The notes under the pieces were generated by a model. It was not told where the DNA came from. It ran no database searches and was given only the letters and a program-made list of their open reading frames with translations. A program made the position numbers and the translations under genes. This document shows positions 46,189 through 52,025 of a stretch of 64,000 nucleotides of DNA, one piece after another. The first letter of the stretch is position 1, and each line of letters begins with the position of its first letter. This stretch comes from Catenulispora acidiphila DSM 44928 (lineage in GTDB: Bacteria; Actinomycetota; Actinomycetes; Streptomycetales; Catenulisporaceae), in contig NC_013131.1 of NCBI RefSeq assembly GCF_000024025.1, positions 9,280,229-9,344,228 of the forward strand, written 5' to 3'.

Positions 46189-47061
46189 TTATGAGGACTG
46201 CCCCGCCGAGTCCCGCCAGCGCCATCCGTGATCCACCGGCCCGATCCCGGCGCCCAGCGGGAAGCCCGCCGCGATGCCGCCGGTGACGTACTCCTTCGCG
46301 GCGCGCACCGCCGTCGGCACGTCGTCGCCGAGGGCCAGGCGCGAGGCGATGGCGCTGGCGAGCGTGCAGCCGGTGCCGTGGGTGTGGCGGTTGTCGTGGC
46401 GCGGGGCGCGCAGCCAGTGTTCGGCGCCGTCCGGGCCGACCAGGAGGTCCACCGACTCCGGGTGGTCGCTGAGGTGGCCGCCCTTGACCAGCACCCAGCG
46501 CGGGCCGAGGTCGGCCAGGGCTCGGGCCGCGGCGACCATCTCCGGTTCGGCGACCACGTCCAGACCGGTGATCAGGCGGACCTCGTCGAGGTTCGGCGTG
46601 ACCACCGTGGCGCGCGGGAGCAGTTCGCCGCGCAGGGCGTCGAGCGCCTCCGGAGCCAGCAGCGCATCGCCGTGCTTGGAGACGCTGACCGGGTCCACGA
46701 CCACCGGGACCGACGGGTCCAGCGTGCCGATCAGCCGGGCCACCGTGGAGGTCAGCTCCGGCGAGGCGAGCATCCCGGTCTTCACCGCGTCCACGCCGAT
46801 GTCGTCCACGACGGACCGGAACTGGCGCTCCACCGCCTCGATCGGCAGCGCCCAGAAGTCCTGGACGCCGACCGAGTTCTGCGCGGTGACCGCCGTCAGC
46901 ACCGACATGCCGTGCACGCCGTGCGCCAGCATCGTCTTCAGATCGGCCTGGATGCCCGCGCCGCCGCCGGAGTCGCTGCCGGCGATGGTGAGGACGCGGG
47001 GCGGGGCGCTGGACACGGGACCAGCGGAAGCAACCGGAGCGGCGGACATGGTGATCAGCAT
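46189..47061 (-). CDS. thiD: Hydroxymethylpyrimidine/phosphomethylpyrimidine kinase ThiD
   Basis: ThiD phosphorylates HMP and HMP-P for thiamine synthesis. The 290 residues belong to the ribokinase fold: [18 protein letters not shown] (substrate and first signature), [30 protein letters not shown] and [14 protein letters not shown] (anion hole and catalytic Asp region; the motif GTGC is intact). An ATG at 47049 is an alternative start; neither has a strong ribosome site, and there is no sign of a TPP riboswitch in the 67-nt gap to the upstream GNAT. thiL lies 4 kb away, not in the same operon. Confidence 0.94.
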
Positions 47062-47128: not shown

Positions 47129-47668
47129 TCAGTCCCGGAAGTCGAGCATGCAGAAGACCTTGTCGTAGCGCCGCTCGGCGACGGCGACGAAGTCCGGCAG
47201 GCGGCCGTACTCGCGGAAGCCGAGCGTGCGGTACAGCTTCAGCGCCTTCTCGTTGTCGCCGCGGGCGTCCAGGGTCAGCACCTCGATGCCGGCTTCGCGT
47301 GCGCTGTCCACCAATACGGCGGTGAGCAGACGACCGACTCCGAGACCCTGCGCATCGCTCGCGACAGCGACCTTCTCAAGGTCGGCATGCGGACGATGGG
47401 TCGGCCGCTCGTACCGCAGCCAATATCCGAGTCCCACCAAGCGATCGCCGGAGTATGCCAACCGCAGCGCGCCGTCCCCGGCTCGCGACGCGGCAGCCAC
47501 CTTCTCCAGCAGCGCGTGGATCTCAGGCTTCGAAGGCGGATCCACCCACCCGAGCGCCGCGCCGCCGGCTACCAGCTCGCCGAGAATCGCATGTGCGGCA
47601 TCGGTCAGGGAGGTCAGGGACTCGTCCACCACGCCGCCGCCGTCGCGGATCTCCACACCACTGCTCAT
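47129..47668 (-). CDS. GNAT family N-acetyltransferase
   Basis: This 179-residue protein has a GNAT domain over about residues 70-175: [49 protein letters not shown] (the QGLGVGR acetyl-CoA loop) and [29 protein letters not shown]. The first 60 residues are helical. It lies upstream of thiD with a 67-nt gap and could share its transcript. The substrate is unknown; the tail pattern with [11 protein letters not shown] is general to the family. Confidence 0.85.
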
Positions 47669-47699: not shown

Positions 47700-48602
47700 C
47701 TACGCCATCGCCCAAGCCGCCGGGCTGAACTTCTGCGTCAGCTCCACCAGCGCCTTCAGCGGCGCCGCCCCCGGCCCGATCCCCTCGCGCCACCGCGCCT
47801 CGATGGTCAGCGGCGCCAGGCCCTGCTTCAGATCCAGCATCACCAGGTCGCCGGAGTCCAGCTCGGCCTGCACCGAGAAACGCGGCAGCAGCGCGGCGCC
47901 GCGGCCGTTGACCGTCAGCCGCCGCAAGGCGTTCAGCGAGCCGGTGATCATCGCGATCTTCAGCGACGGACCGAGGTCGCGGCCGCTCTCGTCGAAGAGC
48001 TGCCGGTAGATGCAGCCGATCTCGGTCACCATGAACTCGGTGCGGCGCACGTCCTCCAGCGTCAGCGGGTGCACGCTCGCCAGCGGGTGCGAGGGCGCCG
48101 TCACCAGCACCACGCGGTCGGTGCCGACCACCGCTGTGGGTCCGTCGTAGGCCGGACCGCTGTCCAGCGTGAACACCGCGTCCAGACGCCCTTCCTGCAG
48201 CTCCTCCATCAGCCGGGTGCGGCTGGTGACGGTGACCGTGACGTCCGCGGTCTCAGGACCGGCCGCGCCGTGGTCGAAGGCGGTCAGCATCTCCGGCAGC
48301 CACTCGTCGGCCAGGGACTGCAGGGCGCCGATGCGCAGCAGCGGACGGTGTCCGGAGACGGTGCGGCGCATCTCGCTGTCCAGGTCCAGCATGCGGCGCG
48401 CGTACGGCAGCAGGCGCTGCCCGGCCTCGGTGGGCACCGTGCCGATGCTCGTCCGGTTCAGGACCGGTGTGCCGAGGTCGCGCTCCAGCGTGCGCAGCTG
48501 GTCGCTGACGCTGCTCTGCGCGTAGCCGAGCTGGTCGGCCGCCGCGGAGATGCCGCCGGCCTCCACCACCGCGAGGAACGCGCGCAACTGTCGGGTGTCC
48601 AT
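47700..48602 (-). CDS. LysR family transcriptional regulator
   Basis: This 300-residue regulator has the LysR helix-turn-helix (MDTRQLRAFLAVVEAGGISA, GYAQSSVSDQLRTLERDLG) and a two-lobed effector domain from about 88 to 295. The ATG at 48602 has AGGATGG at a good distance; an ORF extending to 48746 has no ribosome site and covers the operator. It is divergent from the YciI gene. A palindrome with the LysR T-N11-A form lies 13-31 nt upstream of its own start, and a near-identical copy sits before the Dabb/MFS pair, so it probably controls all four genes and itself. The effector is unknown. Confidence 0.92.
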   Translation of the reverse strand: MDTRQLRAFLAVVEAGGISAAADQLGYAQSSVSDQLRTLERDLGTPVLNRTSIGTVPTEAGQRLLPYARRMLDLDSEMRRTVSGHRPLLRIGALQSLADEWLPEMLTAFDHGAAGPETADVTVTVTSRTRLMEELQEGRLDAVFTLDSGPAYDGPTAVVGTDRVVLVTAPSHPLASVHPLTLEDVRRTEFMVTEIGCIYRQLFDESGRDLGPSLKIAMITGSLNALRRLTVNGRGAALLPRFSVQAELDSGDLVMLDLKQGLAPLTIEARWREGIGPGAAPLKALVELTQKFSPAAWAMA

Positions 48603-48612
48603 GCCACCATCC

Positions 48613-48633
48613 TGCCATCGGCTTCTCCGATAG
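48613..48633. promoter_or_regulatory. LysR-type operator 1 (T-N11-A palindrome)
   Basis: TGCCATCGGCTTCTCCGATA holds the inverted arms ATCGG and CCGAT around CTTCT, with T-N11-A spacing. It lies 13-31 nt upstream of the LysR start and 112 nt upstream of YciI. The copy at 49383 shares 18 of 20 bases. Confidence 0.75.
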
Positions 48634-48744
48634 GGGCGGCTCACAGGGTACGGTGCGTGCGGACCCCGGGTCCGTACGCCGGGTCCCCCGGAGTTCTTGA
48701 ACAGAACGCCGTCGCTGGACTGAAACTTCCATTCCCAAGGAGAC

Positions 48745-49032
48745 ATGGTGGCTCGCTTCGCCGTCGAATACGTCTACACCGCGGACACCGCCAAGCGCGA
48801 CGAGGTCCGCCCCGCGCACCGCGCCTTCCTGGCCGAGGCCCAGGGCCGCGGGGAACTGCTGGTCTCCGGGCCGTGGGCCAACAACACCGGCGCGCTGCTG
48901 GTCTTCGAGGTCGAGGACGAGGACGCGCTGAAGACTCTGCTGGAGCACGATCCCTTCGCCGAGGCCGACCTGGTCAGCCGGGTGCGGATCAACGAGTTCA
49001 ACCCGGTTCTGGGAAGCTGGCTCGCCGGCTGA
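48745..49032 (+). CDS. YciI family protein
   Basis: This 95-residue YciI-type ferredoxin-like protein is similar in form to muconolactone isomerase-like small enzymes. The start ARFAVEYVYTADTAKRDEVRP is followed by HRAFLAEAQGRGELLVSGP, the conserved His/Asp and SGP strand, and by DPFAEADLVSRVRINEFNPV at the end, the DPF motif. The start is ATG 48745 (AAGGAG 3 nt away) or GTG 48748. It is divergent from the LysR gene. A role in small aromatic or lactone metabolism is family-based guesswork. Confidence 0.84.
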   Translation: MVARFAVEYVYTADTAKRDEVRPAHRAFLAEAQGRGELLVSGPWANNTGALLVFEVEDEDALKTLLEHDPFAEADLVSRVRINEFNPVLGSWLAG

Positions 49033-49063
49033 AGCCGGCGGCCGGCCTCGGGGGATCTGGCGG

Positions 49064-49351
49064 TCAGATCCGGAACAGGATCCGCTCGCGCTGCGCGCGG
49101 ATCGGGTCCAGGTGCCGGGTCCGGACTTCGTGGTGGCCGGGGTCGGCGACCCAGGCCCGGTAGGTCTCCTCGTCGTCGAAGTCGGCGATCACCGCGGCGT
49201 CCATCGCGTCGTCCGTCAAGCGGGCGTCGCGGTGGAACTCGAAGTGGCGGCGGCCCTCGAACGGCAGGGCGCCGAGGGCCTTGCCGAAGGCCTCGATCTG
49301 GTCGTCGGTGGCGTCGGGGGTGAATTTGATGAGAAGGATGCTTCGGATCAC
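49064..49351 (-). CDS. Dabb (stress-responsive A/B barrel) domain protein
   Basis: This 95-residue dimeric alpha/beta barrel protein starts with IRSILLIKFTPDATDDQIEAF. The conserved H/D strand pattern RRHFEFHRDARLTDDAMDAAVIADFDDEETY follows, and it ends DPGHHEVRTRHLDPI, as in Dabb proteins. The GTG at 49351 matches the family start; the listed longer frame is Arg-rich and unlikely. It lies convergent to YciI (31-nt gap) and divergent from the MFS gene, with operator 2 between them. Barrels of this kind often handle small aromatic or polyketide substrates. Confidence 0.82.
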   Translation of the reverse strand: MIRSILLIKFTPDATDDQIEAFGKALGALPFEGRRHFEFHRDARLTDDAMDAAVIADFDDEETYRAWVADPGHHEVRTRHLDPIRAQRERILFRI

Positions 49352-49382
49352 GCTCTGATCTTGGCGCAGACCCCGCCGACTA

Positions 49383-49403
49383 TGCCATCGGAGTCTCCGA
49401 TGG
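49383..49403. promoter_or_regulatory. LysR-type operator 2 (copy of operator 1)
   Basis: TGCCATCGGAGTCTCCGATG carries perfect 7-bp arms CCATCGG/CCGATGG around AGTCT and T-N11-A spacing. It lies between the Dabb gene (32-52 nt upstream of its GTG) and the MFS gene (56 nt upstream of its ATG). Confidence 0.78.
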
Positions 49404-49458
49404 GGCGATCGGAAACCCGGCCTGTCGGCGAGACCGGCGCCGGACCGATCCTCGGGGC

Positions 49459-50850
49459 ATGGCACTGATCGACGAAGCCGCACCGAAGACCGCCGGCTCC
49501 ACTCCCCCGACCCCTGGCAAGCCTCAGCGCTCTGCCGCCTTCCGGACCAGGGCGGCGTTCGCCGGCATCGTGGCCGGCAACTTCATGGTCCTGCTCGACG
49601 CGACGATCCTCAACGTCGCGCTCCCCGATATGAAGGCGCATCTGCACGCCTCGGCCGCCGCGCTGCCGTGGACCGTGGACGCCTACACCGTCGTGTTCGC
49701 CGGCCTGATGCTCGCCTCCGGCGCGGTCGCCGACCGGTTCGGCGCCCGCCGCGTGTATCAGAGCGCGGTCGCTTTGTTCGGGCTGTTGTCCCTGCTCTGC
49801 GCGCTGGCGCCGAACGTCGGCGGCCTGATCGCCGGCCGCGCGCTGCTCGGCGCGGCGGCGGCCGGCATGGTCCCGGCCTCCCTGTCCCTGCTCGCCGGGC
49901 TCTACCCCGACGCCAAGGACCGGATGAAGGCGGTCGGCGCGTGGGCCGCGCTGTCCGGGATCGGGCTGGCCGTCGGGCCGGTGCTCGGCGGCGCGCTGGT
50001 CGCGGCCGGCGGCTGGCGGCTGGTCTTCGTGGTGAACCCGCCGCTGGCGCTGGTCTCGTGGTTCCTGGTCCGCGGGCTGTCCTCGCAGGCTTCCGGACAC
50101 CGCAAGAAGTTCGACATCCCGGGCCTGGTGCTGTTCACCGTCGCGCTGTGCGCGCTGACCTACGGTCTGGTGGACGCCGGGACCGAGGGCTGGAGCACGC
50201 CGTCCGCGCTGGTCGCGCTGGCGGTCGCGGTGCTCGCGGCGGTCGCCGTGGCCTTCGTCGAGCGCCGGGCCGAGACCCCGGTCCTGCCGCCGGAGCTGCT
50301 GCGTCTGGGTCGGGTCCGCACCAACCTGGTGACCGCGGTCGCCGCGAACTACATCTTCTATGGGCTGCTGTACTCGGTCACGCTGTGGTTCGAGGAGACG
50401 CGGCACATGAGCGCGGCGATGACCGGCGTCGCCTTCCTGCCGATGATGGTGCCGCTGTGCTTCCTGCCCTTCTTCACCAGCCGGCTGGCGCACCGGTTCG
50501 GCGCGCGCCCGATGGTGATGGTGGCGATGGTGGTGAACGTCGGGGTCGGCGCGGTCCTGTTCACCGTCGGCGCCCACACCTCGCTGGCGGTGGTGACGGT
50601 CGCGCAGGTCCTGATGGCGATCGCGACCACGCTGACGATCCCGTCGATCACCGCGGACATGGCGGTGGCCACCCCGCGTCCGCTCGCCGCGACCGGCCAG
50701 GGCGCGCTGAACGCCGCACGCCAGACCGGGAGCGCGCTGGGCGTGGCGATCCTCGGCACGATGTCGGGGATGCACGCCGCCGGGATCGCGATGGCCGCCG
50801 GCGCGCTGCTCACGCTGGTGCTCGCCGGGCTCACGCGCCGCAGCGCCTGA
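49459..50850 (+). CDS. DHA2-type (14-helix) MFS efflux transporter
   Basis: This 463-residue drug:H+ antiporter is of the EmrB/QacA group. It has FMVLLDATILNVALPDMK (motif D1), LASGAVADRFGARRVYQ (motif A), GRALLGAAAAGMVPASLSLL (motif B) and LSGIGLAVGPVLGGALV (motif C), plus the later helices to residue 463. The ATG at 49459 has GGGG-type sequence upstream. Operator 2 and the divergent Dabb gene suggest inducible export of the compound the LysR regulator senses. The substrate is unknown. The gene converges with thiL, 62 nt apart. Confidence 0.92.
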   Translation: MALIDEAAPKTAGSTPPTPGKPQRSAAFRTRAAFAGIVAGNFMVLLDATILNVALPDMKAHLHASAAALPWTVDAYTVVFAGLMLASGAVADRFGARRVYQSAVALFGLLSLLCALAPNVGGLIAGRALLGAAAAGMVPASLSLLAGLYPDAKDRMKAVGAWAALSGIGLAVGPVLGGALVAAGGWRLVFVVNPPLALVSWFLVRGLSSQASGHRKKFDIPGLVLFTVALCALTYGLVDAGTEGWSTPSALVALAVAVLAAVAVAFVERRAETPVLPPELLRLGRVRTNLVTAVAANYIFYGLLYSVTLWFEETRHMSAAMTGVAFLPMMVPLCFLPFFTSRLAHRFGARPMVMVAMVVNVGVGAVLFTVGAHTSLAVVTVAQVLMAIATTLTIPSITADMAVATPRPLAATGQGALNAARQTGSALGVAILGTMSGMHAAGIAMAAGALLTLVLAGLTRRSA

Positions 50851-50912: not shown

Positions 50913-52025
50913 CTACGCCGAACGGCCGAAGTGGCTGAACCCGGCGGCGCCCTCCCACGGTTTGCCGTCGACGGTCACGGAGGCGGCACCGGCGTAGACG
51001 GTCCCGACCGGACGCCAGCCCTCGGGGACGGCGTCAGCCGAGGTGAAAGTGGCGACCAGCGCGTGGTCCTCGCCGCCGGTCAGGACCTGGTCCAGGCGCG
51101 GACCCCGGTCGGTGATCAGCAGGGTGCTGTCGACGTCGACCGCGACGCCGCTGGCCACGGCCAGGTGCCGCAGGTCGGCCAGCAGACCGTCGCTGACGTC
51201 GAGCATCGCGGTGGCGCCGGCCCGGGCGGCTTCGGGACCGGCGGCGTACGGCGGGCTCGGGCGGCGGTGCGCGATCAGATAATCAGCGGCCTGCGGTGCC
51301 GCCGAGGTGGCGAAGTCCGCCCCGGTCGCGCCATGGTCCGCTTCCGCCGCGCCGTCACCCGGAGCGCCGCCTCGTGCGCGTGCACCGCTTTGCGGAGTTT
51401 CCCCGGTCAGGTCGCTCGACGCGGCGTCGCTCCCGTTCGCACCGTCACCCGATCCGGCGACGGCGTCACCTTCTCCCTGTCTCTCGCCCGCGAGCAGCAG
51501 TTCCAGCCCTGCCGCCGACCACCCGAGCCGTCCGGCGACGGCCACCGTGTCCCCGGGACGCGCCCCCGAGCGCAGCACCGGAGCCCGGCCTTCGAGCGTG
51601 CCGAGCACCGTCACCGAGATCGTGATCAGGTCGCCGCGTACCATGTCGCCGCCGGCGACGATCGCCCCGACCCGCGCGCACTCCCCGGCCACGCCCTCGG
51701 CGAACTCCTCGACCCAGGCCACCGGCAGGTCTCCGGGCAGCACCATGCTCAGCAGCAGTGAGGTGGGGACGCCGCCCATCGCGACGATGTCGCTGAAGTT
51801 CTGGGCCGCCGCCTTGTGCCCGATGTCGCGCGGGCTGGACCAGTCGCGGCGGAAGTGGCGGCCCTCCAGCAGCAGGTCGGTGCTGACGGCCAGGCGGCCG
51901 TCGGGGGCGGCGAGCACGGCGGCGTCGTCGCCGGCCGGCACCAGGGTGTCGGGGCTGGTCAGGGGCAGGCGCGCCTGGACGCGGGCGATGAGTCCGAACT
52001 CGCCGGCGTCGTCGATGGTCTCCAC
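50913..52025 (-). CDS. thiL: Thiamine-monophosphate kinase ThiL with a low-complexity insertion
   Basis: ThiL phosphorylates thiamine monophosphate to the active diphosphate. The 370 residues have the PurM-like fold: GPAGDDAAVL-type start (LVPAGDDAAVL), VSTDLLLEGRHF, AAAQNFSDIVAMGG, GGDMVRGD, AMLDVSDGLLADL and TGGEDHALVATF, all ThiL motifs. Between the GLELLLAG helix and YLIAHRRPSPPY lies an extra Gly/Ser/Ala/Asp-rich segment of about 65 residues (about 183-248), making the protein longer than the usual 300-330. It starts at GTG 52025. It is divergent from the Lrp-like gene; this order (thiL, Lrp, DUF3515, ddl, gpsA, plsC) is a conserved actinobacterial block. Confidence 0.93.
   Translation of the reverse strand: METIDDAGEFGLIARVQARLPLTSPDTLVPAGDDAAVLAAPDGRLAVSTDLLLEGRHFRRDWSSPRDIGHKAAAQNFSDIVAMGGVPTSLLLSMVLPGDLPVAWVEEFAEGVAGECARVGAIVAGGDMVRGDLITISVTVLGTLEGRAPVLRSGARPGDTVAVAGRLGWSAAGLELLLAGERQGEGDAVAGSGDGANGSDAASSDLTGETPQSGARARGGAPGDGAAEADHGATGADFATSAAPQAADYLIAHRRPSPPYAAGPEAARAGATAMLDVSDGLLADLRHLAVASGVAVDVDSTLLITDRGPRLDQVLTGGEDHALVATFTSADAVPEGWRPVGTVYAGAASVTVDGKPWEGAAGFSHFGRSA

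What the first reader, a model, noticed from the sequence alone, without database searches (positions are those of the whole stretch)
48602..50850. Two near-identical LysR operators link LysR, YciI, Dabb and MFS genes as an unrecognised regulon
TGCCATCGGnnTCTCCGAT occurs at 48613 and 49383, both with T-N11-A spacing and both in divergent intergenic gaps. Together they flank YciI, a Dabb barrel protein and a DHA2 exporter, with the LysR gene itself beside site 1. Two small barrel-type enzymes plus an exporter under one regulator suggest detoxification or signalling with a small aromatic or polyketide-like compound.
Basis: partly seen in the sequence, partly recalled or inferred. Interest (0 to 1): 0.72.

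Follow-up and report, generated by a model that had tools for sequence, protein, structure and literature searches.

The report
LysR exporter switch with two operators
A soil actinomycete carries a conserved genetic switch in which one LysR-type regulator very probably controls a drug-type exporter, and perhaps two small barrel proteins, through two copies of the same DNA site; it is a new example of a well-known kind of switch with an unusual history of gene insertion.

Summary
The 19-mer lies exactly at 48613 and 49383, both in divergent gaps, and exactly nowhere else in the 10.47-Mb genome. All 10 same-genus genomes keep LysR<-op1->YciI, Dabb<-op2->MFS with both palindromes (ATCGG-N5-CCGAT). 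In other genera the unit is LysR<-op->MFS with one palindrome and no YciI/Dabb between. The MFS-side operator has classical LysR anatomy: a palindrome, an ATCG half-site 21 bp on (23 of 24 loci), and a palindrome centre 64-66 bp before an in-frame MFS ATG (24 of 24), preceded by a leaderless -10 signature. Best reading: LysR activates the exporter from -65. Op1 lacks the half-site and sits on the inferred LysR and YciI promoters, which suggests autoregulation or repression. YciI and Dabb were found with this locus only in Catenulispora, where the block lies between thiD and thiL, genes that are adjacent in 5 of 5 other genomes checked. Binding, ligand and the chemistry of YciI/Dabb are unknown; nearest solved folds (TftG, olivetolic acid cyclase) make a small aromatic or polyketide-like compound plausible, not shown. 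Ordinary mechanism, solid new member.

The parts
47700..48602 (-). LysR-type regulator, 300 aa
   Evidence: Pfam HTH_1 70.5 bits (cut-off 26.6) and LysR_substrate 122.9 bits (cut-off 28)
48609..48614 (-). -10-like hexamer of LysR (CAGGAT) at -12..-7 of its ATG; leaderless start inferred
   Evidence: A(-11) and T(-7) in 10 of 10 Catenulispora rows, and in 20 and 21 of all 26 rows
48617..48631 (.). op1: ATCGG-N5-CCGAT; centre 22 bp before the LysR ATG; no second half-site on either side
   Evidence: 10 of 10 same-genus genomes
48649..48654 (+). TACGGT, proposed -10 of the YciI promoter, 25 bp from the op1 centre; op1 would then cover the -35 region (inferred)
   Evidence: same spacing in 10 of 10
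48745..49032 (+). YciI-family protein, 95 aa
   Evidence: Pfam YCII 51 bits (cut-off 24); predicted fold nearest TftG and HI0828
49064..49351 (-). Dabb-family protein, 95 aa, GTG start
   Evidence: Pfam Dabb 43.8 bits (cut-off 25), also ABM 24.3 (cut-off 23.1); nearest solved fold 3bgu, further down At3g17210 and olivetolic acid cyclase
49358..49363 (-). -10-like hexamer of Dabb (CAAGAT); leaderless start inferred
   Evidence: its A and T columns invariant in 10 of 10; start codon 43 bp from the op2 centre in 8 of 10, one base further in 2
49387..49401 (.). op2 main palindrome (RBS-like), ATCGG-N5-CCGAT; centre 65 bp before the MFS ATG
   Evidence: in-frame ATG at 64-66 bp in 24 of 24 loci with both operator and MFS
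49408..49422 (+). op2 second half-site (ABS-like), ATCGGA-N4-CGG, 21 bp after the first
   Evidence: ATCG at this place in 23 of 24 loci, ACCG in L012
49447..49452 (+). -10-like hexamer of MFS at -12..-7 of its ATG; leaderless start inferred
   Evidence: A(-11) in 20 of 24, T(-7) in 22 of 24
49459..50850 (+). MFS transporter, 463 aa, DHA2/EmrB-like
   Evidence: Pfam MFS_1 148.2 bits (cut-off 33.4); best NCBIfam model TIGR00711 178.8, below its cut-off 230.2
47129..47668 (-). GNAT acetyltransferase downstream of LysR on the same strand; possible passenger or co-transcribed member
   Evidence: Pfam Acetyltransf_1 52.4 bits (cut-off 20.7); present in 10 of 10 Catenulispora loci

Best explanation
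The locus is a LysR-type (LTTR) switch for an MFS exporter. The LysR binds ATCGG-N5-CCGAT. At op2 it occupies the main palindrome at -65 and the half-site 21 bp nearer the promoter; when its (unknown) small ligand binds, it activates transcription of the MFS gene, which starts at or next to its ATG. At op1, a lone palindrome overlapping the LysR promoter and probably the -35 region of the YciI promoter, the same protein limits its own synthesis and gates YciI. In Catenulispora a LysR<-op->MFS divergon was parted by YciI and Dabb, with one operator copy on each side, so that all four genes stay next to a site. Shown by sequence: both sites, their conservation, spacing, half-site and gene order. 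Inferred: binding by this LysR, transcription starts, direction of control, order of evolutionary events. Unknown: ligand and enzyme reactions. The confidence given is for the LysR acting at both sites and activating MFS; for control of YciI and Dabb alone I would put about 0.6.
For: Both operators in 10 of 10 same-genus genomes. 20 of 21 named loci with LysR identity of 47% or more have the core near the LysR start (ten of the 21 are genomes already). An in-frame MFS ATG lies 65 bp (18), 64 bp (4) or 66 bp (2) from the operator centre in 24 of 24 loci, while from the half-site to the ATG the 14 non-Catenulispora loci are only 43% identical on average, against 86% in the palindrome and 65% in the second site. 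ATCG at +21 in 23 of 24. Leaderless -10 signature like that described in PMC8079986 (passages) and PMC3160421 (passages). A pattern-first search of 293 genomes gave 63 composite sites; 42 lie by LysR and transporter genes: 10 Catenulispora op2, 9 orthologous LysR/MFS pairs, 3 distant LysR/MFS pairs, 20 EamA/LysR places (one search prints 21 because one place is held twice). A palindrome near -65 with a second site over -35 is the usual LTTR layout (PMC12016517, passages).
Against: No binding or expression data. L077 (S. echinatus, LysR 50% identical) has no core upstream; L080 has the operator but no MFS in the DNA held. More distant divergent LysR/MFS pairs of Amycolatopsis (L084, L085, L087; LysR 32-35%) have no core. 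21 of 63 composite sites have neither gene nearby; the Markov estimate of about 0.1 per genome would give roughly 30 by chance, and the reversed control (1 match) is not matched in dinucleotides. In the 3 distant LysR/MFS loci and the EamA loci no start codon lies at +62 to +68. In 10 of the 24 loci other in-frame MFS start codons also exist. Transcription starts are inferred. Nothing shows that YciI or Dabb responds to the LysR.
Confidence: 0.8

Rival explanations
1. Only LysR and MFS form the regulon. YciI and Dabb are unregulated passengers between them, and op1 is kept only for LysR autoregulation.
For: The single operator in other genera serves LysR and MFS alone. Op1 lacks the second half-site. 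In 25 loci of YciI or Dabb homologues inspected elsewhere, two have a core nearby and neither has ATCG at +21 on the strand listed.
Against: YciI, Dabb and both operators are kept in 10 of 10 genomes. Spacing of op1 to the TACGGT box (25 bp, 10 of 10) and of op2 to the Dabb start (43 or 44 bp, 10 of 10) is fixed.
Confidence: 0.3
2. A regulator other than the neighbouring LysR binds the palindromes (a paralogue or another helix-turn-helix family).
For: No binding data; the genome has at least 37 LysR matches at E<=0.001 (39 of 69 candidates were scored).
Against: The site travels with this LysR in the genera found and has the LysR hallmarks T-N11-A and -65 placement.
Confidence: 0.08
3. The two palindromes are chance or a generic genomic repeat.
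For: The core has 23 places in the genome against about 15 expected; 8 neighbouring pairs of 5-N5-5 repeats within 1 kb exist in the window.
Against: Same arms, fixed spacing and half-site in 24 loci of several genera; 16 of 21 other core matches lie in called ORFs, and one other composite site exists in the genome.
Confidence: 0.02

Closest known systems
Classical LTTR promoters with a regulatory site near -65 and an activation site over -35 (BhbR1 as described in PMC12016517; BenM/CbnR-type systems recalled)
   Same: 15-bp T-N11-A palindrome near -65, second site a short gap further on, probable autoregulation
   Different: target is an exporter; a second, lone copy of the palindrome serves the regulator and YciI; the MFS start looks leaderless
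Divergent LysR/MFS pairs of Streptomyces, Actinospica, Kitasatospora, Solihabitans and Streptacidiphilus found here
   Same: orthologous LysR and MFS, same palindrome, half-site (ACCG in one) and 64-66 bp spacing
   Different: one operator, no YciI or Dabb between the genes
EamA transporter with a convergent LysR in Streptomyces-like genomes (for example L059)
   Same: ATCGG-N5-CCGAT-N6-ATCG in front of or at the 5' end of a transporter reading frame
   Different: transporter family, gene orientation and spacing differ; the LysR is only about 31-36% identical in the full-length matches
TftG dehydrochlorinase and HI0828 (YCII family); olivetolic acid cyclase and At3g17210 (Dabb-type folds)
   Same: predicted folds match (TM about 0.6-0.8); His25 and Asp69 of YciI align with a His and an Asp of HI0828 and TftG
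   Different: sequence identity about 17-26%; reactions not tested

Membership tests
LysR-type transcriptional regulator (LTTR) | N-terminal LysR HTH plus LysR substrate-binding domain | tested here: met
   Pfam HTH_1 and LysR_substrate above cut-off
LTTR operator | T-N11-A palindrome near the regulator's own start, in a divergent gap | tested here: met
LTTR activator promoter | main site near -65 and a second site toward -35 | tested here: inconclusive
   spacing to the start codon and the half-site are conserved, but the transcription start is inferred
LTTR activator promoter | ligand-dependent binding and activation | not testable with these tools
   needs footprint and transcript data
EmrB/DHA2 efflux subfamily (TIGR00711) | score above the curated cut-off | tested here: not met
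   178.8 against 230.2; passes MFS_1, so EmrB-like only
YCII family | Pfam YCII above cut-off, ferredoxin-like fold, conserved His and Asp | tested here: met
   51 against 24 bits; H25 and D69 invariant in 10 of 10 and aligned with His and Asp of HI0828 and TftG; fold
YCII dehydrochlorinase (TftG-like activity) | enzymatic activity | not testable with these tools
   fold resemblance only
Dabb family | Pfam Dabb above cut-off and ferredoxin-like fold | tested here: met
   43.8 against 25 bits; ABM is also just above its cut-off; model pLDDT 80.0, nearest 3bgu

The most novel reading that the evidence does not exclude
A LysR divergon was split by captured genes, and its operator was copied so that both halves stay under the regulator. 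One copy is a full activator site (palindrome plus half-site at -65); the other is a lone palindrome over two promoters, so one ligand-responsive protein drives the exporter up while setting regulator and YciI levels in the opposite or a different sense. YciI and Dabb would then process the same small aromatic or polyketide-like compound that the MFS exports.
Probability: 0.3. Interest if true: 0.5.

Novelty: new member of a known kind. Interest (0 to 1): 0.38.

Why it matters
It gives a precise, testable operator code (ATCGG-N5-CCGAT-N6-ATCG at -65 of a probably leaderless exporter gene) for a LysR/MFS pair shared by several actinomycete genera, and ties two poorly understood small-barrel families to an exporter through a shared regulatory site. 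The comparison of one-operator and two-operator loci shows how a divergent regulatory unit can take in new genes and keep them next to its control site.

Tried and rejected
Chance repeat: rejected on conservation. Larger own-genome regulon: the 21 other exact core places and 3 of the 4 two-mismatch places (the fourth is one of the 21) were fetched; 16 of the 21 lie in ORFs called by third-position GC, one a doubtful 101-aa ORF. Five (L037, L040, L044, L048, L049) lie outside called ORFs; the exact composite pattern found only one other place in the genome, the coding one, so these five lack an exact half-site. Not followed further; the 3-mismatch matches were not looked at one by one.

YciI/Dabb with the site elsewhere: each protein was searched in 99 relatives and each alignment in 396 genomes of the phylum (E<=1e-6 for Dabb, 1e-14 for YciI, at most 12 candidates scored per genome). 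YciI matched in 52 of 99 relatives, mostly weakly; of the non-genus loci I inspected 4 (L153-L156), with 21 in all with about 1.5 kb on each side. Two have a core (L195, L197), without ATCG at +21 on the strand listed.

How the operator was copied: the inner flanks of op1 and op2 do not look alike beyond about 20 bp by eye, so this is undecided. Codon-position divergence of YciI and Dabb is only a weak sign of purifying selection. PDB search with the single YciI sequence gave nothing; the profile gave HI0828 and TftG. BhbR2 of PMC12016517 was considered as an LTTR model for op1 and dropped: it is a MarR-family protein.

Literature: nine paper searches (open-licence library only, listings) showed no report of this operator or locus; this is not proof of absence. 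Passages seen: PMC7837296, PMC7641849, PMC12016517, PMC6018408, PMC3160421, PMC8079986. No paper was read whole.

Rows left out: LysR loci below 46% identity (L016-L030, L084-L142) are not in the 24-locus set. L063-L070 are taken as repeats of L004-L006, L008-L010, L012 and L013, and L075 and L076 as repeats of L011 and L015, by matching positions, identities or contig lengths. L077 and L080 are left out of the MFS spacing for want of operator or MFS. The 26-row LysR table includes L077, whose start is misplaced. The scripted spacing check looked only at 64-66 bp; one search read the in-frame starts without that limit.
Full report
Observation. Each contains a perfect ATCGG-N5-CCGAT palindrome with T-N11-A inside. 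The first lies between LysR and YciI, the second between Dabb and MFS. The window belongs to a single-contig genome of 10,467,782 bases; its same-genus relatives are named Catenulispora, and that size is the one I recall for C. acidiphila. In that genome the core occurs 23 times and the 19-mer exactly twice; with up to 3 mismatches the 19-mer has 53 matches against 7 for the reversed control. Of the 21 other core places, 16 lie in ORFs called by third-position GC, one of these a doubtful 101-aa ORF. A first-order Markov estimate gives 0.09 cores per window and about 15 per genome. Repeated inverted repeats of this size within 1 kb are not rare in the window (8 neighbouring pairs), so the case rests on conservation.

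Conservation in the genus. The LysR search covered 60 genomes, the own one included. The ten genomes of the genus (L001-L010, the window's own being L001) all keep LysR, YciI, Dabb and MFS with both palindromes. The op1 centre is 22 bp from the LysR ATG in 10 of 10. Op1 has a TACGGT 25 bp from its centre on the YciI side in 10 of 10. The Dabb start codon is 43 bp from the op2 centre in 8 of 10 and one base further in 2 of 10.

Other genera. A scan of genome contigs with a ten-sequence LysR alignment returned the best 80 of 160 related loci. 21 of these (L063-L083) have LysR identity of 47% or more: six Catenulispora or Catenulisporales records, two Actinospica, and 13 of Streptomyces, Kitasatospora, Solihabitans, Streptacidiphilus and one unclassified actinobacterium. 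20 of the 21 have the core near the LysR start; L077 does not. None of the 15 loci outside Catenulispora (L069-L083) shows YciI or Dabb by tblastn at E 1e-3 in the DNA held. Three Amycolatopsis loci with LysR of 32-35% identity and an MFS have no core. After removal of repeats, 24 loci (10 Catenulispora, 14 others) have both operator and MFS. In 24 of 24 an in-frame MFS ATG lies 64 to 66 bp from the operator centre: 65 in 18, 64 in 4, 66 in 2; in 10 of the 24 other in-frame start codons also exist. A second half-site, ATCG, lies exactly 21 bp after the first in 23 of 24; L012 has ACCG. Among the 14 non-Catenulispora loci mean pairwise identity is 86% in the palindrome, 65% in the second site and 43% from there to the ATG, so the fixed spacing is not simple sequence likeness.

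Promoters. Anchored on the MFS start codon, the two most informative columns are T at -7 (22 of 24) and A at -11 (20 of 24). That is the -10 signature of a transcript starting at the start codon, as described for leaderless genes in S. lividans (PMC8079986, passages) and in bacteria including Actinobacteria (PMC3160421, passages). LysR shows the same columns (A in 20 and T in 21 of 26 rows, one row misplaced), and Dabb in 10 of 10. If the MFS transcript starts at its ATG, the palindrome is centred at -65 and the second site runs toward -35, the usual LTTR layout (PMC12016517, passages; PMC6018408, passages). This is sequence geometry; no start has been measured.

The two sites differ. Op1 has no second half-site in either direction in 10 of 10 genomes. 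Its centre lies at -22 of the inferred LysR start and, if TACGGT is the YciI -10 box, at about -37 of YciI. Both positions fit repression better than activation. This step is inference.

Pattern-first test. The composite ATCGG-N5-CCGAT-N6-ATCG was searched in 293 genomes of the order: 63 places in 59 genomes, 1 for the reversed control. The reversed pattern is not matched in dinucleotide content; the Markov estimate of about 0.1 per genome would give roughly 30 by chance. All ten Catenulispora genomes have it at op2; the window's own genome has one more, inside an ORF. The other 53 places were all looked at, as loci or stretches fetched. Of the 63, 10 are Catenulispora op2, 9 are orthologous LysR/MFS pairs, 3 distant LysR/MFS pairs, 20 have EamA and another LysR beside them, and 21 have neither (one search prints 21 EamA because one place is held twice). 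The 9 orthologous pairs all have ATG at 64-66 bp, but at least five are loci already in the 24. The 3 distant pairs and the EamA loci have no start codon at 62-68 bp. In 14 of the 20 EamA places the match to the EamA reading frame of L059, whose true start is not established, begins before the site, so the site may lie in front of the gene or within its 5' end.

Origin. YciI was searched in 99 relatives: 52 have a match, outside the genus at most 46% identical (G015; the best E-value there is at 40%, G062). Dabb in 99 relatives has one match outside the genus, partial and 34% identical. Samples of 396 genomes of the phylum gave distant homologues; of 25 loci inspected, two have a core nearby and neither the half-site on the strand listed. 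In five genomes of other genera (two of one genus of the same family, two Streptomyces, one of a third family) thiD and thiL are adjacent, 5 of 5. In Catenulispora the GNAT-LysR-YciI-Dabb-MFS block lies between them: thiD on the LysR side in 10 of 10, thiL on the MFS side in the window and in 6 of 6 named loci, one cut by its contig end. So the block entered or formed at this place in the genus; whether operator copying and YciI/Dabb capture were one event is open.

Proteins. LysR, YCII, Dabb and MFS_1 all pass Pfam cut-offs; the MFS falls short of the TIGR00711 EmrB cut-off. The YciI model (pLDDT 89.6) is nearest to TftG and HI0828, then to muconolactone isomerase ClcF. Its His25 and Asp69 are invariant in 10 genomes and align with a His and an Asp of HI0828 and TftG. 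The Dabb model (pLDDT 80.0) is nearest to 3bgu (function unknown), then 3fmb, At3g17210 and olivetolic acid cyclase. These folds make a small aromatic or polyketide-like substrate plausible; no ligand is shown.

Verdict. A real, conserved LysR-linked operator system built, as far as sequence can tell, on a standard LTTR mechanism. Interest is moderate: the mechanism is known, the split divergon with a second operator copy is unusual, and the operator code is directly testable.

Noticed in passing
window 46189-47061 and 50913-52025: thiD and thiL flank the whole block here but are adjacent in five of five genomes of other genera checked.
   Followed up: partly
L059 from 4400, and 19 similar places: The same composite operator stands at or before the 5' end of an EamA transporter frame with a LysR of another subfamily beside it; in L059 a ubiD gene is nearby.
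   Followed up: partly
L077 near 4001: S. echinatus has a LysR 50% identical but no operator; the match begins at residue 5 and an MFS-like stretch (29%) on the other strand overlaps its start, so the locus may be rearranged.
   Followed up: no
L080 upstream of LysR: Operator with half-site but no MFS found in the DNA held.
   Followed up: no
window 47129-47668: GNAT gene directly downstream of LysR on the same strand, present in 10 of 10 Catenulispora loci; may be co-transcribed with LysR.
   Followed up: no
window about 51250-51500: The ThiL reading frame appears to carry a low-complexity insertion; the NCBIfam ThiL model matches it in two stretches.
   Followed up: no
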